This document shows positions 11,476-62,045 of a stretch of DNA of 64,000 nt, piece by piece. The position numbers were made by a program, and so were the translations under genes. The notes beneath the pieces are model-generated. The model saw nothing but the letters and a program-made list of their open reading frames with translations. It made no database searches and was not told the origin of the DNA. Location of the stretch: IMG/VR virus record IMGVR_UViG_3300012000_002192, positions 1 to 64,000 of that record. One strand, 5' to 3'. The DNA is from a virus. How positions within the stretch are numbered: position 1 is the first letter of the stretch; each line of letters starts with the position of its first letter.

Positions 11476-12117
11476 TTACTCAGCTGGAAGTTCTTCGGTT
11501 CCTTCTTCTTTAGACTGACCTTCTTCTTCTTTAGACTGACCTTCTTCTTTAGACTGACCTTCTTCTTTAGACTGACCTTCTTCTTCTTTAGACTGACCTT
11601 CTTCGGCATTTGGCTCTTCGAATTCTTTGTCTTCTGGCTTCACCTGTGATTGAGATTGGCTTTGAGCTTGACCTTGAGCTGGCTCTTCAGTCTTTTCAGG
11701 AGCCTCTTCAGTTTCAGGAGCCTCTTCAGTCTTTTCAGTAGCCTCTTCAGTTTCAGGAGCCTCTTCAGTCTTTTCAGTAGCCTCTTCAGTTTCAGGAGCC
11801 TCTTCAGTTGATTGAATTTGAACTTGGTCTTGCGACCCTCCCATTAAAATGTTCGATGGTATTTTTTCAATATCCAGATTGTTTAAGTTAATATACTTAA
11901 TGATTTCTTCTGCGATATCGACATCTCCGAAAAATTGTCTCAGGTTTTTTCCGGTTGTATCTTTTACCTTTTTAACATAAGCGTTAATCAAAGACTGTGG
12001 TATATCAACCATAGTCTTAACTTTGTAAATATCGTTAACTTGAAGAACGGATTCTTTAATAATCTCCTCTCTGTTTTTTTTGATACGATAACTTTCAAAT
12101 GTTCTAATGTGTTTCAT
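11476..12117 (-). CDS. Acidic repeat protein with capsid-targeting-like N-terminus
   Basis: This 213-residue protein starts MKHIRTFESY, a tag of the recurring type. Residues 25-90 form a helical domain. The C-terminal ~115 residues are highly acidic low-complexity sequence made of two arrays: about three copies of a 13-residue Glu/Thr/Pro/Ala unit and five copies of a GQSKEE or GQSKEEE unit. Such a polyanionic tail recalls scaffold or internal core proteins of T4-like heads, but no family is recognised. A TATATAAAA element lies about 36 bp upstream. Confidence 0.65.
   Translation of the reverse strand: MKHIRTFESYRIKKNREEIIKESVLQVNDIYKVKTMVDIPQSLINAYVKKVKDTTGKNLRQFFGDVDIAEEIIKYINLNNLDIEKIPSNILMGGSQDQVQIQSTEEAPETEEATEKTEEAPETEEATEKTEEAPETEEAPEKTEEPAQGQAQSQSQSQVKPEDKEFEEPNAEEGQSKEEEGQSKEEGQSKEEGQSKEEEGQSKEEGTEELPAE
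11501..11599 (-). repeat. Tandem 18-21 bp coding repeat (GQSKEE)
   Basis: Five head-to-tail copies of a unit encoding GQSKEE, some with an extra Glu codon. Copy number is likely to vary by slippage. Confidence 0.85.
11681..11808 (-). repeat. 39-bp tandem coding repeat (TEEAPETEEATEK)
   Basis: About three near-identical 39-bp units encode a 13-residue acidic motif in the same gene. Differences are mostly Thr/Pro alternatives in the last unit. Confidence 0.85.
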
Positions 12118-12170: not shown

Positions 12171-12668
12171 TTATTTCAATGCAAAAAACAGAAAAGTAGT
12201 AGCTAAAACTCCAAGTATACCAGCCCCATAGGCTATATTTCTTTTCCTTTTAACGGTTTTTAGTTCATCTTTAAGTGTCAAGATTTGATCCTCTTTTAGT
12301 TTTATTTGAGAATCACAGTCGGCATTATTTGTTTCGCAATTGGAAATCTGTTGTTTTAAATTTTCAATTTGAGAATTTTTATCCACTATTTGACTCTTTA
12401 ACAGATCGGAACCTGAGTTAAGTAGTTTATTTTGGTTTTCAAGTTCATTAATGACTTTGATATATTTTAGGTTCAAACTATCACATTCTGTTCCTGCTTT
12501 TTCTAATAATTTGATAATTTCTAGGTTATTGTCTATTTTCTGAGCCTGTTCATAAGAAAAAATAACAATTTTTTTCCCAGTGGAGTCGGTCGATAATTTT
12601 GGGTAACCGTTTTGGCTAAAAGAGACAAAACTAATAAGTATTAAAACTATTGTAAATATCTTTCTCAT
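12171..12668 (-). CDS. Exported coiled-coil protein with C-terminal membrane helix, spanin candidate
   Basis: This 165-residue protein has a signal peptide of Bacteroidota style (about residues 1-19, ending FVSFSQ), a periplasmic coiled coil (about 40-140), and a C-terminal hydrophobic segment (about 146-164). It follows the 140-aa membrane coiled-coil gene by a single base, so the two are probably translationally linked. A pair of envelope-spanning coiled-coil proteins is the layout of two-component spanins, which fuse inner and outer membranes at lysis. No endolysin or holin is identified nearby, so this is inference. Confidence 0.6.
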   Translation of the reverse strand: MRKIFTIVLILISFVSFSQNGYPKLSTDSTGKKIVIFSYEQAQKIDNNLEIIKLLEKAGTECDSLNLKYIKVINELENQNKLLNSGSDLLKSQIVDKNSQIENLKQQISNCETNNADCDSQIKLKEDQILTLKDELKTVKRKRNIAYGAGILGVLATTFLFFALK

Positions 12669-12669
12669 A

Positions 12670-13092
12670 TTATTTTAATTTTTCTTTTAATGATTCAATT
12701 AGATTATCCCCTTCCCTATTAATTGGATTTTTCTTTAAGTCTTCAACTCTTTTTCTAGTCTTTGTTAATTCAGTTTTCATATCACTGAGATCTTTTTTAG
12801 ATTGAGACAAATCGATTTTAGCTTGAGATAGTTGATATTCTATTGATTGTATTTTTGAATCCCTTTGGTCAATTTTATTTTGATAATCATTGAAATTATC
12901 TTTTAACATGATATTTACTTGATCCAATGAATCTCTACTTTTTTGGAGATTTTTATATTCCGTTTTGAGCCTTTTAAGTTCTCTTTTAGAAGCCGAATCA
13001 CTACCTTTGAGATACCACATTGAAAAGAAAACAATGCAAAACAGAAGTAATAATAAAATTAAACCGGTCTTTAAATCAATTTTTACAGACAT
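12670..13092 (-). CDS. N-terminally anchored periplasmic coiled-coil protein, inner-membrane spanin candidate
   Basis: Residues about 9-28 form a single membrane helix, and almost all of residues 32-135 are a charged coiled coil rich in Lys, Asp, Gln and Ser. This matches the topology of Rz-like i-spanins (short cytoplasmic N-terminus, one helix, long periplasmic coiled coil) and the length of that class. Its stop is one base from the next gene. A TATATAATA element lies about 25 bp upstream of its ATG. Confidence 0.6.
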   Translation of the reverse strand: MSVKIDLKTGLILLLLLFCIVFFSMWYLKGSDSASKRELKRLKTEYKNLQKSRDSLDQVNIMLKDNFNDYQNKIDQRDSKIQSIEYQLSQAKIDLSQSKKDLSDMKTELTKTRKRVEDLKKNPINREGDNLIESLKEKLK

Positions 13093-13151
13093 AAAACTTT
13101 CTTTTTTTATTATATATAGAAAAAAGATTCTCTTTTTAAATAAAAATTTAT

Positions 13152-13694
13152 ATGAACTATAGACGACTGGTTTCTTTTGATTTCGATGATACTCTTTGCC
13201 TTACTCCAACGGAAGAAAGTGGGCGAAGAATATGGAGAGAAAAAATGATTACTCGATACCCGAATAATCCAGAAAAGTGGAACTGGCCATACACCGGTTG
13301 GTGGTCTAAGCCTGAAAGCCTGGATTTATCGGTGTTTGATATACCGGTAAATGAATGGGTTTATCAGAAATATCTAGAGGAAGTTTCAAAAGATTCTACT
13401 TATCTAATTATGGCGACTGGTAGAATTGAACCCTTAAGAAAACAAGTTCAGTTAATTTTAGACAGTCATAATTTGTCTTTTGATGAAATTTATCTTAACT
13501 TTGGGACAGATACGTTTTTATTTAAAACACGCCTTTTTGAAAACCTAATAGAAAGGATTAAACCCGAAATATTTGTGATGTATGACGATAGAGAGGCACA
13601 TTTGCCCAGGTTTGAAGAGTGGGCTTTATCTCAAAATTGCCAAGTTACTATTGTTGACGTGGTCTCTAAAATAACTAAAACTTTTAATAACTAA
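13152..13694 (+). CDS. HAD-superfamily phosphatase-like protein
   Basis: This 180-residue protein has the HAD motif I FDFDDTL (residues 9-15; nucleophile Asp10, acid/base Asp12), motif II in YLIMATGR, and a motif III/IV region with FVMYDDREAHLPRFEEW. The spacing and the DDRE-H segment resemble the HAD domain found in RNA-repair (Swiss Army Knife type) and T4 Pnk-like 3'-phosphatases. A nucleic-acid end-repair or nucleotide phosphatase role is therefore plausible but substrate is unproven. It is immediately followed by clpS. Confidence 0.8.
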   Translation: MNYRRLVSFDFDDTLCLTPTEESGRRIWREKMITRYPNNPEKWNWPYTGWWSKPESLDLSVFDIPVNEWVYQKYLEEVSKDSTYLIMATGRIEPLRKQVQLILDSHNLSFDEIYLNFGTDTFLFKTRLFENLIERIKPEIFVMYDDREAHLPRFEEWALSQNCQVTIVDVVSKITKTFNN

Positions 13695-13711
13695 AATATA
13701 TAAAAAAAAAC

Positions 13712-13996
13712 ATGGAAACGATCACAAAAAAGAAATCACAGAGTAAAGTAGACGAGATACTCTCTAAGCCTTATCGATTGGTTTTACACAATGATGACTA
13801 CAATACCTTTGACCATGTTATTAATTGTCTGGTAAAACACTGTGGACACGAATATGAACAGGCTAATCAATGTGCTCATATTGTACATTTTAAAGGTAAG
13901 TGCGACGTAAAATATGGAGACTTTGATACAATTTCAGAAATGAAGTCTAAATTAAGAAATAGTGGTCTTTCTGCGACTATGGAAGCTAATTCTTAA
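13712..13996 (+). CDS. clpS: ATP-dependent Clp protease adaptor ClpS
   Basis: This 94-residue protein is a complete ClpS core. The substrate-binding loop LVLHNDDYNTFDHV (about residues 23-36) and the ClpA/ClpC-binding helix with CAHIVHFKGKC (about 53-63) are intact, followed by the typical end of the fold, SGLSATME. ClpS delivers proteins with destabilising N-terminal residues to the ClpAP or ClpCP protease and can block other substrates. A phage copy could redirect host proteolysis. A TATATAAAA element lies about 14 bp upstream. The stop overlaps the terminase C-terminal gene by 4 bp (convergent). Confidence 0.9.
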   Translation: METITKKKSQSKVDEILSKPYRLVLHNDDYNTFDHVINCLVKHCGHEYEQANQCAHIVHFKGKCDVKYGDFDTISEMKSKLRNSGLSATMEANS

Positions 13997-16209
13997 TCCC
14001 TTTTAAACCAGTTATTTATATTTGGGTTACTCATAGATTTTTTTAATCTAATTGCATTTTTAGTCTCTATAAATGTTGAATAATCAACGCCTTCTACAAA
14101 GTCAATTTTTTTTAGAATTTCATTAATGTGGTCTAATTTTTCTCTATCTAAATTTTTTGATGCCCATTCATCCACGATTTCTCTAAACTCTGGTTTTTTG
14201 AACACCGAAGTTGAGTTGACTATCGTCATAACACAATCATCATGACCGTGATCTGCTGCATATCTTGTATTTCCAGCAGTGGTTGTGTGCTTGACAAAAG
14301 TTGTTATTTCTCTAATAGTGTCTTCGTTGTTTATATAAAATGATTTTGACAACATAAGGTCCTGATAGTCTTTGACTAAAATATTTTTATTCTCACCGAC
14401 TTTGAGACCTACTTTTTCTTCATTTGAATCAATTCTGTGTTTATATCTCATAAAAATTGAGGAACCGTAATCATTATTTCCTTCAAAGACGTGGGGCATT
14501 TCTGCAAGCAGCGTATTGCCATAGTTGTTTAACTCTAAAACAATTTTGACATTTTCTGGATTAAAAAATTCGAAGGCTAGTAGATAAAGAAGTTCTGCTA
14601 CTTGTTTTATTGAAATAATATTGCTTCGATAAATTCCAATTTGTTCTAATCTAAAAAAATCAACAATCGATTCGTATTTAGCCTTTTGAAGTTCTATTAA
14701 ATCCGTTGGTTTTACGCCAACTTTGAAAATGTTAATTACGGAGTAATCTTGACCTAGACCTTCGGCTAAGTCAACAGATATTACAATTTTGTAATCCTTT
14801 CTTTTTATTGGTAAATAAATTTCTTCATCATCTATCCATTTTAAGTCTGAATAATCAAACTTAATCCTCTCAAATTCAGCAATCTCCTCAAAAATATAAT
14901 TTTTCTTACTCCTCAATAGCTCATCGATAATGGATTCATTTAATAAGGATTTAGATTCGTTTATAAACCTTAGACCATATTCCTGATTAAAGGCGTCTTC
15001 GCCTCCAATATCCTTGATAGCTTCTTCTTTCCAGGTAGTGACTTCTGAAATTAACCTAATTGAAATTTCTCTGTTCTCGGTCTTTATCATAGTTGATTTT
15101 ACTTCGTCATCAGAGCAGTGCTCATTATTATAAACACAAATGATGTCTTTTTGTAAATCAGAATTCCAAATCATTTCTACTTTTGTTCGCATTTCAAATT
15201 TTTCCCTACATTGTTCTAACACATCTTCTTTCGTTAACTTGTTATCCCATAGTTTATGTGAATTTAATCTAATGTAGGTAACGAATCTTCCAGGAACTTG
15301 GTACCAATAAACCCGCATTGGTTTATAGTTGTTTTTTTGCGGATCACCTTCTGGTCTTTCAGCATCTGTAAGTAGCCTGTGAAATAGATTCATTCCATTT
15401 GGAGTTGATGTTATAATTATTTTTGAGTTCTGAACCGCCGCTGTAGTTGGAAAAGCCGCCGTGTAGTATGGTTCAATGATATTTGATGGAATATGGGCAA
15501 ACTCATCTAAATAGAGCACATCAATAGTAAAACCAATCGCTGGTGTTTTTGTTCTAGCTGAAGTTTTGATACGACAACCGTTTTCAAAAGTTAAAGATTT
15601 TTGATTCCAAGTTTTGACACCGGGTTTTAGAAAAAATGGCAGTAGTGAATAAATTGATTTTACTTTATCAACAATCTCGACAGCTGTGTCACCTTTGTTT
15701 GCAACTATCATAATGTTTTTGTCATTATCAAATAGTATTTTATGTAACATGAAAATTGCCGATGAGATTGTATTGTGTGAAAGTATGCCATTTGTGTAAA
15801 ATCTGTGGTTTTGATGATTAACGGTTGCGTCAAACATAGATGATTTAAAGTTATCCTGCTTTAAAGATATTACTCTTTGTAATCCTGACTCTGTTTGTAT
15901 TATGTCATTCACCACCAAATCTTTTACAAATACTTCATTATAGTCCTTATCAAAGACTATATGATTATCAGCACATGATAATTCATAACCATCTGTTTTA
16001 AGAACATAGTGCCTATATGGTTGGGTTATATGCAAATCTGTTAATTTTTCATATCCTGCATCAGTTCTAACTTTAAACCCGAAAACATTAATAGAATTTA
16101 GTATTTTTTTATTGATGTCATTTTCGTCTAGTGACGAATTTCTCAGTTCTACTCTTTCAATAAAAGTTATTAAAAACTTTATTATCCTTATTAAAACAGA
16201 TTTAATCAT
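13993..16209 (-). CDS. gp17: Terminase large subunit gp17, C-terminal part, preceded by the C-terminal half of a split intein
   Basis: Residues 1-146 are the C-terminal part of an intein, ending FYTNGILSHN. Residues 147-738 are the bulk of the packaging motor: ATPase domain starting TISSAIFMLHK, Walker B region VLYLDEFAHIP, coupling motif IIITSTPNG, and a nuclease domain with SVDLAEGLGQDYSV and HGHDDCVM carrying the acidic metal ligands. The Walker A Lys is missing here; it is encoded by the separate gene at 18022-18546. After trans-splicing the joined protein would be about 711 aa, in the range of T4 gp17 (610 aa). The N-terminal hydrophobic run should not be read as a signal peptide. A TATATATA element lies in the 16-bp gap to the divergent endonuclease gene. 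Confidence 0.92.
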   Translation of the reverse strand: MIKSVLIRIIKFLITFIERVELRNSSLDENDINKKILNSINVFGFKVRTDAGYEKLTDLHITQPYRHYVLKTDGYELSCADNHIVFDKDYNEVFVKDLVVNDIIQTESGLQRVISLKQDNFKSSMFDATVNHQNHRFYTNGILSHNTISSAIFMLHKILFDNDKNIMIVANKGDTAVEIVDKVKSIYSLLPFFLKPGVKTWNQKSLTFENGCRIKTSARTKTPAIGFTIDVLYLDEFAHIPSNIIEPYYTAAFPTTAAVQNSKIIITSTPNGMNLFHRLLTDAERPEGDPQKNNYKPMRVYWYQVPGRFVTYIRLNSHKLWDNKLTKEDVLEQCREKFEMRTKVEMIWNSDLQKDIICVYNNEHCSDDEVKSTMIKTENREISIRLISEVTTWKEEAIKDIGGEDAFNQEYGLRFINESKSLLNESIIDELLRSKKNYIFEEIAEFERIKFDYSDLKWIDDEEIYLPIKRKDYKIVISVDLAEGLGQDYSVINIFKVGVKPTDLIELQKAKYESIVDFFRLEQIGIYRSNIISIKQVAELLYLLAFEFFNPENVKIVLELNNYGNTLLAEMPHVFEGNNDYGSSIFMRYKHRIDSNEEKVGLKVGENKNILVKDYQDLMLSKSFYINNEDTIREITTFVKHTTTAGNTRYAADHGHDDCVMTIVNSTSVFKKPEFREIVDEWASKNLDREKLDHINEILKKIDFVEGVDYSTFIETKNAIRLKKSMSNPNINNWFKRD
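15772..16209 (-). other. C-terminal half of split intein (146 residues)
   Basis: It ends in block F/G sequence RFYTNGILSHN followed by extein Thr, the +1 nucleophile. It also contains the region with GYELSCADNH (block B-like, about 74-83), so the intein is split before block B. This is earlier than the usual split site near the endonuclease position. The first ~40 residues are an extra amphipathic or hydrophobic stretch. Confidence 0.88.
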
Positions 16210-16210
16210 A

Positions 16211-16222
16211 TTTTATATATAG
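16211..16222. promoter_or_regulatory. Candidate shared promoter element between intein half and homing endonuclease
   Basis: TTTTATATATAG occupies the 16-bp gap between the divergent starts at 16209 and 16226. The motif is near-palindromic and within 5 bp of both ATG codons. Confidence 0.4.
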
Positions 16223-16225
16223 ATT

Positions 16226-17950
16226 ATGCTATCTTCTGAATACGCAACTATATATGTAAATAACTACAATCAAAAGAAAATAATAAACCAATTCGGTGAT
16301 AAATTGAGTGTCAAATCGAATCAAGAATTAAAAATACCTGTTAATATGCTACCAAATGGATCAGGATATAAAGTAAAACCTATATGTGATTTCTGTAAAA
16401 GTGTGTATGATACTGAATGGAGAAAATATTTAAAGATAGAAAATGATGGACAAAAACACTGTTGTAATTCAATAGATTGTATTAATTTAAAAAGAAAAGA
16501 AACTAATATTGAAAAGTGGGGAGTTGATAATCCAATGAAGTCTAAAAAGGTTAAAAAGATATTAGAAAATAAAATTTTAGAAAAGTGGGGAGTTGAGCAC
16601 TATTCCAAAACTGATGAGTTTAAGGAAAAAATTAAACAAACTACATTAGAAAAGTGGGGAGTCGATCATTATTCAAAAACCGGAGAATTTAAAACCAAGT
16701 TTAAAGAAAAAAGTTTAAGTAAATGGGGAGTAGATAATCCGTCAAAATCTGATGTTATTAAAGAAAAGATTAAAGAAGTCTCATTATATAAGTGGGGAGT
16801 TGATAATTATTCTAAAACTGAAGAATTCAAAGATAAAATTAAACAAACATCAATATATAAATGGGGAGTAGATAGCTATTCTAAAACTGAAGAATGTAAA
16901 GAAAGGGTAAGTTTAGATAATATAAAAAAGTGGGGAGTTGATAATTATAATAAATCAAACTTGAGTAAATTTGGTAAAAAAATATTTTCTGAGAATTTCA
17001 TAACTTATTTAAAAAATAAAACATCATTATACAAATGTGAAAAAGGCCATCAATTCGAAATATCATCTGATAATTATTTGAAAAGAAAGGAAATTAATCT
17101 ACCACTTTGTACTGTTTGTAATCCAATAAGCGATTCTCAATCAATTAAGGAAAATGGACTTTATGAGTATATAAAATCAATCTATAAGGGGGAAATTATA
17201 CAATCATACAGGGATGGTTTGGAAATAGATATTTATTTACCCCATTTGAATTTAGGATTTGAATTCAATGGTTTATATTGGCATTCAGATAAGTACAGAG
17301 ATAAGAGTTACCATTTAGATAAAACTAAATATTTTAGTGAAAGAGGAATCAGGATTATACATATCTGGGAAGACGATTGGGTGTTTAAAAACAAAATAAT
17401 AAAATCACAAATAAAAAATTGGATAGGATTAACTGATAAAAGAATACTTGCCAGAAAATGCTGCGTTAGAGAAATTGGAGATACAGTAGCAGTTACTAAA
17501 TTCTTAGAAGAAAACCACATACAAGGAAAGGCTGCTTCGTGTTTGAAATTAGGTCTTTATTATAATGATGAACTTGTGAGTTTAATGACTTTCGATCATT
17601 ACGAGGGGAGAAAAAAGATAAGCGGTTGGAACATAAATAGATTTTGCAATAGAATAGACCATAATATTATAGGAGGGGCAAGTAAATTATTTAAATATTT
17701 TTTAAATAATTATAATGTCGATCGGGTTATTAGTTATGCAGACCGTGACTGGTCCGAAGGCAATCTATATAAAAAATTAGGATTCAAAAAAGTTAGTTCA
17801 AGTGTTCCAGACTATAAATATATTTTTGAGGGTATTAGAGTTCATAAATCAAGATTTAGAAAATCAAAAACCGGTATAAGTGAAAATAAGTTAAATATTA
17901 AAAAAATATGGGATTGTGGTAAAATTAAATGGGAATTTATAGTTCAATAA
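16226..17950 (+). CDS. Vsr-like (EDxHD type) homing endonuclease between the terminase halves
   Basis: This 574-residue protein has four parts. The N-terminal Zn-ribbon-like region carries CDFC ... CC ... C (about 52-88). Next are seven repeats of about 23 residues with the core KWGVDNYSKTEEFK (about 93-250). A Vsr-like nuclease core (about 326-392) has IDIYLPHLNLGFEFNGLYWH and later YH, G and EDDW. The C-terminal GNAT-like domain (about 405-540) is common in phage homing endonucleases. Free-standing enzymes of this Vsr-like family are known between the halves of split-intein genes. It would cut intein-free terminase alleles so that repair copies the whole interruption. It is transcribed opposite to both terminase pieces. 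Confidence 0.85.
   Translation: MLSSEYATIYVNNYNQKKIINQFGDKLSVKSNQELKIPVNMLPNGSGYKVKPICDFCKSVYDTEWRKYLKIENDGQKHCCNSIDCINLKRKETNIEKWGVDNPMKSKKVKKILENKILEKWGVEHYSKTDEFKEKIKQTTLEKWGVDHYSKTGEFKTKFKEKSLSKWGVDNPSKSDVIKEKIKEVSLYKWGVDNYSKTEEFKDKIKQTSIYKWGVDSYSKTEECKERVSLDNIKKWGVDNYNKSNLSKFGKKIFSENFITYLKNKTSLYKCEKGHQFEISSDNYLKRKEINLPLCTVCNPISDSQSIKENGLYEYIKSIYKGEIIQSYRDGLEIDIYLPHLNLGFEFNGLYWHSDKYRDKSYHLDKTKYFSERGIRIIHIWEDDWVFKNKIIKSQIKNWIGLTDKRILARKCCVREIGDTVAVTKFLEENHIQGKAASCLKLGLYYNDELVSLMTFDHYEGRKKISGWNINRFCNRIDHNIIGGASKLFKYFLNNYNVDRVISYADRDWSEGNLYKKLGFKKVSSSVPDYKYIFEGIRVHKSRFRKSKTGISENKLNIKKIWDCGKIKWEFIVQ
16500..16990 (+). repeat. Seven degenerate 69-bp coding repeats in the homing endonuclease
   Basis: Each unit encodes about 23 residues built around KWGV[DE]-x-[YP]-x-K[ST]. 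Nucleotide copies share the core AAGTGGGGAGT. These are protein DNA-binding repeats, not a CRISPR array. Confidence 0.85.
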
Positions 17951-18016
17951 ACTTATTACATCTCAATTCAGATACCCGTTTGTTTATTCGCAATATTATC
18001 ACCGATAGTAATAAGT
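17951..18016. repeat. Inverted repeat in the gap next to the N-terminal intein half
   Basis: ACTTATTAC at 17951-17959 and its exact complement GTAATAAGT at 18008-18016 bracket most of the 71-bp gap between the endonuclease stop and the terminase N-terminal gene stop. It could be a weak terminator stem or an end mark of the inserted segment. Confidence 0.4.
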
Positions 18017-18021
18017 ATTGT

Positions 18022-18546
18022 TTAGAGATTTTCTAATCTGTATAGATAGTCATATAACTTAATCTTAATTTTTTCTAAAATTGTAAGCTTTCTTTCTTTG
18101 GAAATCATTGAATAATAGAGCTTTCCTATTCTAACATCATATTGGATATCATTTTTTTCAATCGATATTATTGTGTTAAAAGAAAAGCATTTTCCAACTT
18201 GCCGACTCGCCATTATTATATTAAATCGACTATTTACCAAATTATCAAGTATTTCATTTTGATAATCCCTGAGACTTATGTTACCAATTGAACCATCTTC
18301 TCTTTTCACTTTGCAGTATTTTTCTACAAAGTAGTGTATATCCAAAGCGCAATTTATATACTCCTGTTGTTCATCTTGTGTCATCTTAAATGCCACACCC
18401 GCTCTTCTTACACCCACTTCACTTTTTAGCCATGGATTTTGATATCTTTTAATGACAATACCATCATTAATCTTATCTGTCGATTCATTTACGACATTGG
18501 TGGTAAATATCATTTGCCTTTCTAATTCTTCACCTTGTTTTGCCAT
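18022..18546 (-). CDS. gp17: Terminase large subunit gp17, N-terminal part, fused to the N-terminal half of a split intein
   Basis: Residues 1-119 are the start of gp17, including the adenine-binding region SLRDYQNEILDNL and the beginning of Walker A, MASRQVGK. At residue 120 the sequence becomes an intein N-terminal half: CFSFNTIISIEKND (Cys1, block A) and 41 further residues ending in a basic amphipathic helix. T4 gp17 reads SRQLGKTTVVAIF here, so the break falls exactly between Lys and Thr of GKT. I use the ATG at 18546, not the adjacent in-frame GTG. Together with the gene at 13993-16209 it would give one functional terminase after protein trans-splicing. Confidence 0.9.
   Translation of the reverse strand: MAKQGEELERQMIFTTNVVNESTDKINDGIVIKRYQNPWLKSEVGVRRAGVAFKMTQDEQQEYINCALDIHYFVEKYCKVKREDGSIGNISLRDYQNEILDNLVNSRFNIIMASRQVGKCFSFNTIISIEKNDIQYDVRIGKLYYSMISKERKLTILEKIKIKLYDYLYRLENL
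18025..18189 (-). other. N-terminal half of split intein (55 residues)
   Basis: It starts with Cys1 immediately after extein Lys119. Block A (CFSFNTIISI) is clear and no block B is present. The last ~25 residues are a Lys/Leu/Ile-rich helix that could help pair with the C-terminal half. Confidence 0.88.
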
Positions 18547-18590
18547 CACGGAGACTTTATTTTTAATATATATTGTAAAAAACCGCCTTT

Positions 18591-19217
18591 ATGTCAAAGT
18601 CCGAAAATGAAAGAAATAGATTACAAGATGAATTCGAACAGATTCAGTCTGAGGGGACCGACTTTGATATTTCAAAACACCTTGCAAAACCGGAAGACCT
18701 TCCTAATTTAGGAGAAATCGAAATCTATGACTACGATTCTGACTTAACTACTTCTTCTCAACAATCAATGGGTGTTTTAGAGTCGTTAGTAGATCTTTAT
18801 CTAAGCGATATACCACAATTGAAAGACCATCCCTACATTAAAAACAAAATGAAAGAAGATGCTATGGTTTATGCCGAGGCAATATTTTTAACTAAAATGA
18901 CTAGAAAAAACTTCTTATCACAGCTTAGGCAAATAGACAACGGTGATAATTCAGCTAGAATGCACGAGGTAGTCAATCAAACTATTGGTCAAATACGAGA
19001 AAATGCTAAATTCCTTTCGGGTCAAAGAACTGATTTGGAAAAGTTTTATAAAACGCTAAGAAAGGATATGGGATATAACGAAATTGAAAATCCTGATATA
19101 AAAACAGATGATGTTGATGGTCAGTCGGTTAAAGATGGTGTGATAACAAGTAACAGGGATCTAAATGAGTTGATAAAAAAGGCTATGTTAAATAAAGACA
19201 GTGATAAACGGGGTTAG
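18591..19217 (+). CDS. gp16: Terminase small subunit gp16-like candidate
   Basis: This 208-residue protein lies divergently next to the terminase N-terminal gene, where the small subunit is expected. It has an acidic N-terminus and a central helical region (about 60-165) with MKEDAMVYAEAIFLTKMTRKNFLSQLRQI and QTIGQIRENAKFL. This recalls the helical oligomerisation core of T4 gp16 (QQQMLMDAAKIFLETAK ... MGQMTTTNREILKLHKDM). The C-terminal tail is charged. Similarity is by pattern and position, not strong motif identity. Small subunits recognise DNA and stimulate the gp17 ATPase. Confidence 0.62.
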   Translation: MSKSENERNRLQDEFEQIQSEGTDFDISKHLAKPEDLPNLGEIEIYDYDSDLTTSSQQSMGVLESLVDLYLSDIPQLKDHPYIKNKMKEDAMVYAEAIFLTKMTRKNFLSQLRQIDNGDNSARMHEVVNQTIGQIRENAKFLSGQRTDLEKFYKTLRKDMGYNEIENPDIKTDDVDGQSVKDGVITSNRDLNELIKKAMLNKDSDKRG

Positions 19218-20062
19218 TCTCTCCACTTAAAACTCTCAAAAGATTTTACTAAATTATATAGGCTAATTTTTGTCTCAAACTTTACAAAGGGGTTACTTAA
19301 ATTGTAGGTTACAAAGTTTGAAAGTAATTTTATTTCTGAGTTATCAACTTTGGTCTTAATTTCATCTTTAATCGAATCAGTTGAATTATCATAAAGAATT
19401 TTTAGTAGATTATTTATACTTTTTGAAAAATCAATTGATTTGGAGTCGCTGTCATAATAGGTGATGTTTTTATACTGCTGAATTTGATTGTCTGTAAATT
19501 TATCATCATCGGTTTTGTATCCAACTAAGTGTTGTATCAAAAGTTTGTTCTTAGATTGCACTATTTTATCTTCATCTCTATTGAAAAAAGTTTCCGATAA
19601 GGCATAGTGTCCAAATAACTCTACACCAATTGATTCTAAGTAACTTTTCACCTTTTGTATAATTTTTTCGTAGTTTCTAAGTGTATTTTTTGAACAAAGT
19701 AGATAAATATGACCGGTGTAATTTTTACAATCGATTAGGTGCTCTTTGAAGATATGATATTCTAAACTATCAATTATTTCTGGGTCATTAAATTCTTTCA
19801 TTGAAAAAGCAAGTGCAGTTATATCAACCGAGTTTTTTTTACAAGCTGATTTTATTAGATTATAAGTCTCTTCGCTAATCCATTGATTCTTGCCTGATAT
19901 GTTAAGCTCTACACCTTTGGTTTTGAAAATTCCAGTTTGTATCAAATTAAATTCAGATTCGCTAAGTTTGATTAAAGGTCTATTGGGATATTTTTTTGAA
20001 ACAACCCAAACCTTGCTTTCTACTTTTATTATAGAATCAATATCAAAAAAAAGAGCATTCAT
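19214..20062 (-). CDS. Hypothetical protein, 282 aa, HAD-like N-terminus
   Basis: The start MNALFFDIDSIIKV resembles a HAD motif I (DxDS-x), but I cannot find a convincing complete HAD core; later segments such as NTLRNYEKIIQKVKSYLESIGVELFG and ITYYDSDSKSI could correspond to motifs III and IV. The C-terminal third is helical. It overlaps its upstream neighbour by 4 bp (ATG/TGA type), so the two genes are coupled. Confidence 0.6.
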   Translation of the reverse strand: MNALFFDIDSIIKVESKVWVVSKKYPNRPLIKLSESEFNLIQTGIFKTKGVELNISGKNQWISEETYNLIKSACKKNSVDITALAFSMKEFNDPEIIDSLEYHIFKEHLIDCKNYTGHIYLLCSKNTLRNYEKIIQKVKSYLESIGVELFGHYALSETFFNRDEDKIVQSKNKLLIQHLVGYKTDDDKFTDNQIQQYKNITYYDSDSKSIDFSKSINNLLKILYDNSTDSIKDEIKTKVDNSEIKLLSNFVTYNLSNPFVKFETKISLYNLVKSFESFKWRD

Positions 20063-20298
20063 TGTCTATAGTTTGTAACTTTGTATTTAATTTGGTGATA
20101 TCTCATGTTTGGGTAATCTTTTGGGTATTCTCTATCAATCCATTCAACGCCACCACTCAATTCTGAGTTGAAACTATTACATTTTTTACACACCTGTGGC
20201 GGGACTTTTGATTCTCCTTCGTCGATCATGTCATTTTCTGTATAGAAAAACGTAGCTTTACACCAAGGATTTCTACAAACTGTTGATAAATTCTCCAT
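20059..20298 (-). CDS. Small zinc-ribbon protein, 79 aa
   Basis: Two Cys pairs, C8-x4-C13 (CRNPWC) and C36-x2-C39 (CKKC), are separated by about 22 residues, as in a zinc ribbon. The remainder is acidic and Tyr-rich. Function unknown; such proteins often bind nucleic acid or partner proteins. A TATATATT element lies about 9 bp upstream and its stop overlaps the next gene start. Confidence 0.65.
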   Translation of the reverse strand: MENLSTVCRNPWCKATFFYTENDMIDEGESKVPPQVCKKCNSFNSELSGGVEWIDREYPKDYPNMRYHQIKYKVTNYRQ

Positions 20299-60518: not shown

Positions 60519-62045
60519 GTGCTAGTTGAGACGCAATATTTACCAAATAGTAAAAAGTTAGTAGTCAGTTTTGTTGACAAAAGCGGGGATATTAAGTTAA
60601 AGTATTTCAATTGGGACAATCCTATGAAGTACGTCTCATGCGAGGATACTGATCCACAAAAACACCCCCAATTTAGATCCTGGGATGGAAAATCGGTAAA
60701 GCAGATAGAAGTCTCACAGCCTGATAGATATGCTGTCTATGAATTTTTAGATTCGCTACCAGAAGAAGAAACATCTGAAATTTTTGAATTCAACTTGCCA
60801 AAAATTTATTTTATTGATATTGAAACTGAGATTATAGATGGATTTCCTGAAGCGGCTGACGTTAAAGACGCAGCGGGAAATGTGGTTAAAGAGGGGGCTA
60901 TTACTCAAGTATTGTCAATATCCATAGTTTATGAAGATAAAATTATTTTGCTTGGTCTAAAAGATATGCCTGATGATATGCAAAATAGAATTATCACCAA
61001 CACTAACAAATATTTTGAAAAGTTTGGAACAGAATATAAATTCAAGTATGTAAAATATGAAGATGAGTTCGAGATGTTGCATGCCTTTTTTTACAAAATG
61101 GTTCCAAAAATGCCGCTTCTAACTGGTTGGAACTTTATAAATTATGACTGGGTCTACCTTGTTAATAGGGCCAGAAAAATATCTAAATGGGTCAATGGTA
61201 GAGAATATACTATAAATCCGGCCGTTTCTTCATTTACTAAAAGAATTACTAAAATGTGGGGTAACGAATGTGAGGTTCCTGCGCATAGAATGATATTCGA
61301 TTACATGCAACTTTATGAAATTTGCGACACATCAATTAAAGTTAAAGAATCATCGTCATTGGATTTCGTGTCACATAAATTAGTGGGAGTTGAAAAAATT
61401 AAATATACTGGTTCGCTTCAAAAACTATATGAAGATGATTTCGAGACGTTTATGTATTATAACGCAGTTGACTCGGTGTTGGTTCAAAAAATCCACGAGT
61501 CTAGAAATTATATTTCCATAATCTATGCGATTTCTTCGCTGGCTAAAATTCGAATAGTTGATGTTGTTTCTCAAATGAACAACGCACTTGGTTCTTTAGC
61601 CATCACAGAAGGAGTTTTAAGAAATAAGTTTAGAAAAATGGATAATATTGTTCTTTTCCGTGATGAAAAGGGTGATGCTGAATCAACAATTGCCGGTGGG
61701 TGGGTTAAAGACCCTGTTGTTGGTATGAACCAGTGGGTTGTTACTTATGACTTTGCATCACTTTATCCTACAACGCAAAGACAGTTTTTTATTGCTCCTG
61801 AGACTTTTGTTGGTCTCCAAGATGAAAAAGATAAAACTAAATGCACAAATGGTAGACCTATCGATAGTGAAAAACATGTGCTTTGTGTGAACGGTGTTGT
61901 ATTTGAAAAAAGAAAATCCCCAACTCTAAGAATGCTTGAAGATGTTTATGCTGATAGAAAAAAGAATAAAAAAATTATGATGCAAAAAAAAGAAGAGTTG
62001 AAAGAAGTTCAGGATCAGATAAAAAAATTAGAATCCGAAATTTAA
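60519..62045 (+). CDS. gp43: DNA polymerase family B gp43, N-terminal part only (split gene)
   Basis: The protein contains the 3'-5' exonuclease (exo I FIDIETE, Asp100; exo II NFINYDW; exo III YNAVDSV) and palm motif A, DFASLYP (411-417; T4 motif A Asp is 408). It ends at residue 508 inside the fingers helices (ADRKKNKKIMMQKKEELKEV). Motif B (K-x3-N-x-x-YG), motif C (DTD) and the thumb are absent, and the next gene is unrelated. The C-terminal half must be encoded elsewhere, outside this window. There is no intein-like Cys at the end, so a two-subunit polymerase is more likely than trans-splicing. Start is GTG; a TTTATATAAAA element lies about 19 bp upstream. Confidence 0.9.
   Translation: MLVETQYLPNSKKLVVSFVDKSGDIKLKYFNWDNPMKYVSCEDTDPQKHPQFRSWDGKSVKQIEVSQPDRYAVYEFLDSLPEEETSEIFEFNLPKIYFIDIETEIIDGFPEAADVKDAAGNVVKEGAITQVLSISIVYEDKIILLGLKDMPDDMQNRIITNTNKYFEKFGTEYKFKYVKYEDEFEMLHAFFYKMVPKMPLLTGWNFINYDWVYLVNRARKISKWVNGREYTINPAVSSFTKRITKMWGNECEVPAHRMIFDYMQLYEICDTSIKVKESSSLDFVSHKLVGVEKIKYTGSLQKLYEDDFETFMYYNAVDSVLVQKIHESRNYISIIYAISSLAKIRIVDVVSQMNNALGSLAITEGVLRNKFRKMDNIVLFRDEKGDAESTIAGGWVKDPVVGMNQWVVTYDFASLYPTTQRQFFIAPETFVGLQDEKDKTKCTNGRPIDSEKHVLCVNGVVFEKRKSPTLRMLEDVYADRKKNKKIMMQKKEELKEVQDQIKKLESEI

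What the first reader, a model, noticed from the sequence alone, without database searches (positions are those of the whole stretch)
13993..18546. Fractured terminase large subunit joined by a split intein with a Vsr-like homing endonuclease between the halves
Two minus-strand genes encode gp17 residues up to MASRQVGK plus an intein N-half, and an intein C-half ending LSHN followed by TISSAIF and the rest of gp17. Between them, on the plus strand, sits a Vsr-like homing endonuclease. This is the fractured-gene arrangement described for some phage split inteins, here in the DNA packaging motor of a Bacteroidota phage. Virion production would require trans-splicing of two separately made proteins.
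Basis: partly seen in the sequence, partly recalled or inferred. Interest (0 to 1): 0.92.

Follow-up and report, generated by a model that had tools for sequence, protein, structure and literature searches.

The report
Terminase rebuilt from two separate genes
A huge bacterial virus makes its DNA-packaging motor as two separate proteins, each carrying half of a self-splicing element that should join them; sequence comparison strongly supports this known arrangement, and in some relatives the two genes have moved far apart.

Summary
Two minus-strand genes (18022-18546, 13993-16209) encode a T4 gp17-type terminase broken inside Walker A (SRQVGK|T). They carry a 55-aa N-intein and a 146-aa C-intein; a plus-strand nuclease gene (16226-17950) lies between them.

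The C-intein's closest solved relatives are the inteins VidaL and CatC (3e-11, 1.5e-8). Of 80 related loci, 64 have one uninterrupted terminase at exactly this junction. Precise flanks with and without the cassette, and one near-identical cassette sitting in terminases only about 55-85% alike, show that the unit moves. Splicing itself is inferred, not tested.

The arrangement is a known kind (fractured genes; AceL- and GOS-TerL). Beyond it, and not found in my paper searches:
- the nuclease between the halves is exchanged, flipped or deleted while the fracture stays;
- a contiguous-intein allele exists beside a fractured one with near-identical flanks;
- terminase halves can be unlinked: 12.4 kb apart in the 735-kb phage genome, about 67 kb apart in another record, on opposite strands in a third;
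- the same phage has three more fractured replication genes.

The fracture falls in the turn of a conserved helix hairpin, perhaps a pairing device.

The parts
18190..18546 (-). N-extein: TerL (gp17-type) residues 1-119, ending in the Walker A motif SRQVGK
   Evidence: (T4 gp17 2o0h 1.7e-13)
18025..18189 (-). N-intein, 55 aa (Cys1, block A strands, then a basic helix KLTILEKIKIKLYDYLYRLE); stop codon 18022-18024
16226..17950 (+). Homing-type endonuclease, 574 aa: zinc-ribbon-like N-terminus (by sequence), seven 23-aa KWGV repeats (DUF7487), EDxHD/Vsr-like nuclease domain (~307-400), GNAT-like C-terminal domain (~410-574)
16210..16225 (.). 16-base divergent intergenic stretch with TATATATA between the starts of the nuclease and of the C-half gene
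15772..16209 (-). C-intein, 146 aa (helical head, block B CADNH, block F/G ending SHN)
13996..15771 (-). C-extein: TerL from +1 Thr of Walker A through Walker B and the RNase H-like nuclease domain, 592 aa; stop codon 13993-13995

Best explanation
A mobile split-intein cassette sits in the ATPase P-loop of the phage's only detected terminase gene. The two gene products are made separately. They pair, probably helped by the helix at the end of the N-intein and the helix at the start of the C-intein, and form a HINT fold. By Cys1, Thr+1 and the C-terminal Asn they splice in trans, joining ..RQVGK to TISSAIF.. and rebuilding Walker A, so an active motor exists only after splicing. The nuclease gene is the spreading part: it should cut terminase genes (or inteins) that lack it, and repair copies the whole N-intein/nuclease/C-intein unit in. 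Shown here: anatomy, homology, exact empty sites, horizontal movement of cassettes, purifying selection, exchange and loss of the nuclease, fold of a contiguous relative (predicted). Inferred: the splicing chemistry, cutting by the nuclease, the role of the helices.
For: Empty sites exact at K|T in 64 of the 80 loci. Intein homology to VidaL/CatC/gp41-1 and HINT fold of a contiguous relative, mean pLDDT 92.1, top PDB match VidaL. Insertion confirmed by flanks: L102/L078 and L124/L070 differ by exactly the cassette. Horizontal movement: L104/L108 cassette 90-100% per 60-base window (21 of 27 windows 100%) in terminase flanks of 55-85%; synonymous differences 0.00-0.09 in the intein halves and 0.01 in the nuclease against 0.73-0.86 in the exteins; L097/L102 dS 0.43-0.61 in the cassette against 1.33-1.37 in the exteins. 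Purifying selection on the nucleases, dN/dS 0.11-0.20 in four comparisons. Fracture without nuclease: L091 keeps both halves after losing all but the first 28 bases of the nuclease. Unlinked halves in LR756501, G005 and G009. One Terminase_6N match over the cut-off, the split C half, in 7 of 7 further split-TerL records of 131-276 kb. No intron or ribozyme family in 12500-20000.
Against: No splicing, cutting or expression data. G000 and G002 are fragments. In LR756501 the penultimate His is Leu and block B reads CADIH, and the genome has a second, truncated terL-like ORF without the P-loop Lys, so that copy may be altered or decaying. dN/dS of the C-intein after nuclease loss (L092 vs window) is 0.36, against 0.07 for the C-extein: relaxed. 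Pfam's intein model barely sees the C half. Only 13 of 1,830 locus pairs passed my transfer screen, several of them near saturation.
Confidence: 0.92

Rival explanations
1. The two halves work as a non-covalent two-subunit terminase (a gene in pieces) and the intein remnants are dead.
For: Genes in pieces that keep function without splicing are known in phages (RNR split by a nuclease gene, mentioned in PMC10448857 passages). C-intein dN/dS is raised in one nuclease-less pair (0.36).
Against: The break lies inside Walker A, between Lys and Thr. The intein keeps CADNH and a C-terminal (S/N)HN in 60 of 60 distinct C halves and contiguous forms of the table (CADNH was one of the two search patterns, so partly by construction; LR756501 was not in that set and lacks both). 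Thr, or once Ser, follows in 78 of 78 terminase loci.
Confidence: 0.04
2. The interruption is removed at RNA level (trans-splicing intron).
For: ICP1's terL is spliced at RNA level (PMC10448857 passages).
Against: The interruption is protein-coding with intein motifs under selection; no Rfam match at E <= 1; in three records the halves are unlinked.
Confidence: 0.01
3. The nuclease is not the agent of spread; cassettes move by ordinary phage recombination and nuclease genes merely settle in a safe site.
For: Near-identical phages differ sharply at the nuclease (L094/L104, 99.2% over 2,753 bases and then different nucleases; L094 is a 5,081-base contig, a chimera is possible). The fracture survives nuclease loss.
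Against: Nuclease genes are under purifying selection, and 54 of 63 split terminase loci hold a nuclease match above 70 bits in this very gap.
Confidence: 0.2

Closest known systems
Atypically split TerL inteins (AceL-TerL, GOS-TerL, engineered Cat; VidaL)
   Same: Terminase large subunit; split ahead of block B so that the small piece is the N half; the closest solved relatives are VidaL and CatC
   Different: N half 55 aa, C half 146 aa, against 25/104 (AceL) or 37 (GOS N half) in the review passages; extra conserved helices on both sides of the break; nuclease in between; some halves unlinked. That VidaL comes from a TerL is recalled. Identity of the insertion site with AceL was not tested
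Fractured genes with split inteins and a nuclease in between (Dassa et al. 2009; recalled, paper not held)
   Same: Two genes, split intein halves, free-standing Vsr-related nuclease gene between
   Different: Different host gene and phage group; several unrelated nuclease types in either orientation at one site; nuclease-less and contiguous alleles; dispersed halves
Split PolB intein with an HNH nuclease in phage MIJ3 (PMC6892783, passages)
   Same: Fractured replication gene with a nuclease between the halves
   Different: Canonical split site, other gene and other nuclease
Cyanobacterial DnaE split inteins (recalled)
   Same: Halves at distant loci of one genome
   Different: Bacterial polymerase, canonical split; here a phage packaging motor and an atypical split
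I-Bth0305I (PDB 3r3p)
   Same: Nuclease domain, TM 0.75 by target over 92 columns, profile E 0.004
   Different: Window nuclease adds seven 23-aa repeats and a GNAT-like domain whose first Foldseek match is phage Mu Mom

Membership tests
Intein (HINT splicing domain) | Precise insertion: host protein uninterrupted in relatives | tested here: met
   64 of the 80 loci; L102/L078 and L124/L070 flanks
Intein (HINT splicing domain) | Cys/Ser at position 1, block B His, C-terminal Asn, Cys/Ser/Thr at +1 | tested here: met
   Window: Cys1, CADNH, SHN, Thr+1. Block B Thr is replaced, as in the aligned relatives
Intein (HINT splicing domain) | HINT fold | tested here: met
   Predicted for the contiguous relative L151, pLDDT 92.1; inteins lead the PDB list. 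The window's own halves were not folded together
Intein (HINT splicing domain) | Splicing activity | not testable with these tools
   -
Atypically split TerL intein | Natural split between blocks A and B in TerL, nearest to AceL/GOS/VidaL | tested here: met
   Block B lies in the C half; VidaL 3.2e-11, CatC 1.5e-8, gp41-1 3.3e-6
Fractured gene (Dassa 2009, definition recalled) | Two ORFs with intein halves flanking a free-standing nuclease gene | tested here: met
EDxHD / Vsr-related homing endonuclease (I-Bth0305I) | Vsr-like nuclease domain | tested here: met
   3r3p: E 0.0041, E 1.1e-3 and TM 0.75 by target; modest scores; whole model pTM 0.50
EDxHD / Vsr-related homing endonuclease (I-Bth0305I) | Site-specific cleavage of an intein-less allele | not testable with these tools
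   -
T4 gp17-type TerL | Homology of both halves; ATPase and nuclease domains | tested here: met
   gp17 1.7e-13; Terminase_6N 1.3e-14; Terminase_6C E 9e-4, below its cut-off; phrog_2 2.3e-26
Mahaphage clade (PMC7162821) | Placement in the published clade by tree | not tested
   67.6% TerL identity to the 634,780-base record LR745206, which has no intein; the published tree was not rebuilt

The most novel reading that the evidence does not exclude
In this huge-phage lineage the split terminase intein has stopped depending on its nuclease and become a stable, assembly-gating part: halves scatter to unlinked loci, and packaging waits for trans-splicing. The conserved helix pair at the break acts as an address tag that keeps the TerL halves from cross-splicing with the related atypical DnaB split intein, and with the other split inteins, of the same phage.
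Probability: 0.3. Interest if true: 0.82.

Novelty: new variant of a known kind. Interest (0 to 1): 0.6.

Why it matters
It gives a natural series for one site: no intein, contiguous intein, fractured with any of several nucleases, fractured with the nuclease lost, and halves unlinked. That makes the question how split inteins arise and why they persist directly testable. It also predicts that virion formation in a group of very large phages depends on protein trans-splicing, and that one phage runs at least four split inteins at once without mixing them, which is of practical use for orthogonal split-intein tools.

Tried and rejected
Chance or misread frames: rejected by homology on both sides. 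RNA-level intron: no Rfam match. Intact second terL: one match each in G000, G002 and G005; LR756501 has a second terL-like ORF of 394 aa lacking the P-loop Lys and the nuclease domain. In 7 of 7 further records the only match above the cut-off is the split C half; two have an extra match below it.

Bacterial host by genome contigs: 1 relative among 563 pattern matches, 38% identical, in a Clostridia MAG; it says nothing about this phage's host. Vsr itself was not among the 50 listed Foldseek or VIA rows; a family not listed is not excluded.

Weak points of my own analysis. Both viral scans were capped at the best 80 (of 107 and of 179), and contigs were not dereplicated in the table. Cys1 was used to locate the N halves, and CADNH was a search pattern, so their conservation is partly by construction. 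The tree is a quick search with long-branch warnings, and 9 short rows were dropped before it. Nuclease calls used a 100-bit limit and 70 bits. The printed label says 0.6 where the script used 0.7. The window's N-half row in alignment A3 was off by one codon. One search repeated to no purpose. mostly hit the surname Vidal. The 636- and 642-kb records were fetched but not analysed further.

Paper searches without a report of unlinked phage terminase halves or of four fractured genes in one phage: (open-licence library; listings seen, and passages of five papers).
Full report
WHAT IS THERE. The window is part of a 78,435-base virus record, G000. On the minus strand, 18022-18546 encodes terminase residues 1-119 ending in MASRQVGK, then a 55-residue N-intein and a stop; 13993-16209 encodes a 146-residue C-intein ending LSHN, then TISSAIF and the rest of the terminase (592 residues); between them 16226-17950 on the plus strand encodes a 574-residue nuclease. 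The N part matches T4 gp17 (2o0h, E 1.7e-13) and the junction falls inside Walker A, between Lys and Thr. The C part matches Terminase_6N (1.3e-14) and, weakly and below its cut-off, Terminase_6C, and phrog_2 terminase large subunit (2.3e-26).

THE INTEIN. A profile of ten C-inteins finds VidaL (6vgv, 3.2e-11), CatC (6dsl, 1.5e-8) and gp41-1 (6qaz, 3.3e-6) first among solved structures. The review PMC11766414 (passages) describes AceL-TerL and GOS-TerL as natural atypical split inteins with N halves of 25 and 37 residues, and Cat as their consensus. Here block A is in the N half and block B in the C half, so the split is of the atypical type, with longer pieces. Pfam's general intein model scores the C half only 12.1 bits. 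A contiguous relative (L151, 192 aa) is predicted as a HINT fold with mean pLDDT 92.1 and pTM 0.84; its best PDB match is VidaL. It has two helices, 32-43 and 47-64, joined by a short turn. By alignment with its fractured near-twin L146 the break lies in that turn. Among 35 non-redundant N halves the end helix is more conserved (mean column identity 0.47) than the strand part (0.28); in the C halves head and core are alike (0.52 and 0.51).

EMPTY SITES AND MOVEMENT. Of the 80 loci, 64 have an uninterrupted terminase with K directly followed by T, 14 carry the intein and 2 are cut at the contig's start. L102 and L078 (91-93% identical flanks) and L124 and L070 (88-92%) differ by exactly the cassette. 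L104 and L108, from different metagenomes, share the whole cassette at 90-100% per 60-base window (21 of 27 windows at 100%), while the terminase on either side is 55-85%; the share of synonymous sites that differ is 0.00 (N-intein), 0.09 (C-intein) and 0.01 (nuclease) against 0.73 and 0.86 in the exteins. L097 and L102 show the same more mildly: dS 0.43-0.61 in the cassette, 1.33-1.37 in the exteins. In all, 13 of 1,830 pairs passed that screen, several of them near saturation. On a quick tree of 82 C-exteins (long-branch warnings; 9 short rows dropped) intein absence needs at least 9 changes, 6 of them forced by starred branches, against 23.6 for shuffled labels. So the cassette is mobile, but not randomly placed.

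NUCLEASE TURNOVER. Among the 80 best C-intein loci plus LR756501, 78 are terminases and 3 are other P-loop proteins. Of the 78, 12 had no N half found on the stretch held, 3 are contiguous and 63 are split. Of the 63, 54 have a nuclease match above 70 bits between the halves: 45 of a sense type (ROS/MUCR-like zinc finger plus a DUF559/Vsr-like or related end), 2 of that type antisense, 5 of the window's type antisense and 2 of the window's type sense. Nine have no full nuclease match: L091 (47-base gap), L092 (284, remnant), L122 (190, remnant), L131 (reading frames overlap by 35), L132 (100, remnant), L148 (54), L157 (353, partial), L140 (1,157 bases of unknown content) and LR756501. L091 differs from the window by a 1,762-base deletion that leaves the first 28 bases of the nuclease and both intein halves. 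L095 and L109 share the N-intein (98-100% per window) but have different nucleases; L094 and L104 are 99.2% identical over 2,753 bases up to the end of the N half and then have different nucleases (L094 is a short contig, so a chimera is possible). L151 (contiguous) and L146 (fractured, with nuclease) are 110/110 identical on the N side and 416/439 on the C side, where the differences crowd into the helix at the break. Nucleases have dN/dS of 0.11-0.20 in four comparisons. After nuclease loss the C-intein of L092 shows dN/dS 0.36 against 0.07 for its C-extein, a sign of relaxation.

UNLINKED HALVES. In LR756501 (735,411 bases; by its length the genome that PMC7162821 calls complete and manually curated; passages) the N-half gene lies at 623868-624362(-) and the C-half gene at 609346-611496(-), 12.4 kb apart, with genes on both strands between. 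In G005 (270,756 bases) the C half starts at 115275(+) and the N half at 184880(+), about 67 kb of DNA between the genes. In G009 (29,439 bases) they are on opposite strands, C from 14221(+) and N at 19617-20105(-). G005 and G009 each have a single Terminase_6N match, the split C half. These are metagenome contigs, so misassembly is possible; the 735-kb genome is the firm case. There, however, the penultimate His is Leu and block B reads CADIH, and a second terL-like ORF without the P-loop Lys exists, so decay in that copy is possible.

OTHER FRACTURED GENES IN THE SAME PHAGE. Outside the window, G000 has a DinG/XPD-like helicase in two genes (68381-69217 and 70054-71325) with a canonical split intein at DE|C..N|C and a 300-aa nuclease gene between, and a DnaB-like helicase in two genes (73792-74523 and 74632-75801) with an atypical split intein at GK|C..N|S and no nuclease. 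The DnaB C-intein resembles the TerL one (E 1.7e-12) and CatC (2.1e-4). G002 (131,438 bases) is the same phage by 99.98-100% identity over the two stretches compared and has a family-B DNA polymerase fractured at YADTDS|C..N|S with a 366-aa nuclease between (Pfam's polymerase score is just below its cut-off, PHROGs 3.1e-34).

THE NUCLEASE. Seven 23-residue KWGV repeats (DUF7487), a domain like I-Bth0305I and a GNAT-like C-terminal domain (VIA Z 13.8, 132 residues, 2.6 A; first Foldseek match phage Mu Mom). The model has mean pLDDT 86.3 and pTM 0.50, so the domain arrangement is unsure. PHROGs names the family homing endonuclease (2e-106).

EXPRESSION. TATATA stands within 40 bases upstream of 34 of 62 crude gene calls, against 3.5% of random 40-mers and 12% of shuffled upstream stretches. 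N gene, C gene and nuclease all have it; the last two start 16 bases apart, back to back, and share one copy. This suggests separate expression of the halves but proves nothing.

HOW IT MOST LIKELY WORKS. Two proteins are made; the halves associate and splice in trans, rebuilding Walker A; the nuclease spreads the unit into terminases that lack it. Splicing, cutting and the role of the helices are inferred.

WHAT IS KNOWN. Fractured genes (Dassa 2009, recalled; paper not held), atypical TerL split inteins, a split PolB with an HNH nuclease (PMC6892783 passages), and nuclease genes at recombination boundaries (title and passages of PMC10448857). The word intein does not occur in the held main text of PMC7162821. 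I found no report of unlinked phage terminase halves or of four fractured genes in one phage; that library lacks most subscription papers.

Noticed in passing
G000:68381-71325 (L254:4381-7325), outside the window: Second fractured gene: DinG/XPD-like helicase with canonical split intein and a 300-aa TnsA-like nuclease gene overlapping both halves.
   Followed up: partly
G000:73792-75801 (L254:9792-11801), outside the window: Third fractured gene: DnaB-like helicase with an atypical split intein at Walker A, 108 bases between the halves, no nuclease.
   Followed up: partly
L255:2143-4981 (record G002): Fourth fractured gene: family-B DNA polymerase at YADTDS, nuclease between. The polymerase's first part is a separate gene in the window (60519-62045, +) ending without an intein.
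   Followed up: partly
window 16226-17950: The nuclease ends in a GNAT-like domain whose first Foldseek match is phage Mu Mom; a nuclease joined to a possible DNA-modifying fold.
   Followed up: partly
L117-L123, L135, L144 and L145 (terL C-half ORFs): A second insertion late in the terminase C-extein; in L117 it has weak intein and LAGLIDADG matches.
   Followed up: partly
L160, L162, L166: Related C-inteins in SMC-like, RecA-like and DnaB-like P-loop proteins (SMC and RecA matches below cut-off).
   Followed up: partly
LR756501:700298-701023: A second terL-like ORF (394 aa) with SRQMGI in place of the P-loop Lys and no C-terminal nuclease domain.
   Followed up: no
window 11476-12117: Repetitive acidic low-complexity protein (TEEAPE/KEEGQS repeats).
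   Followed up: no
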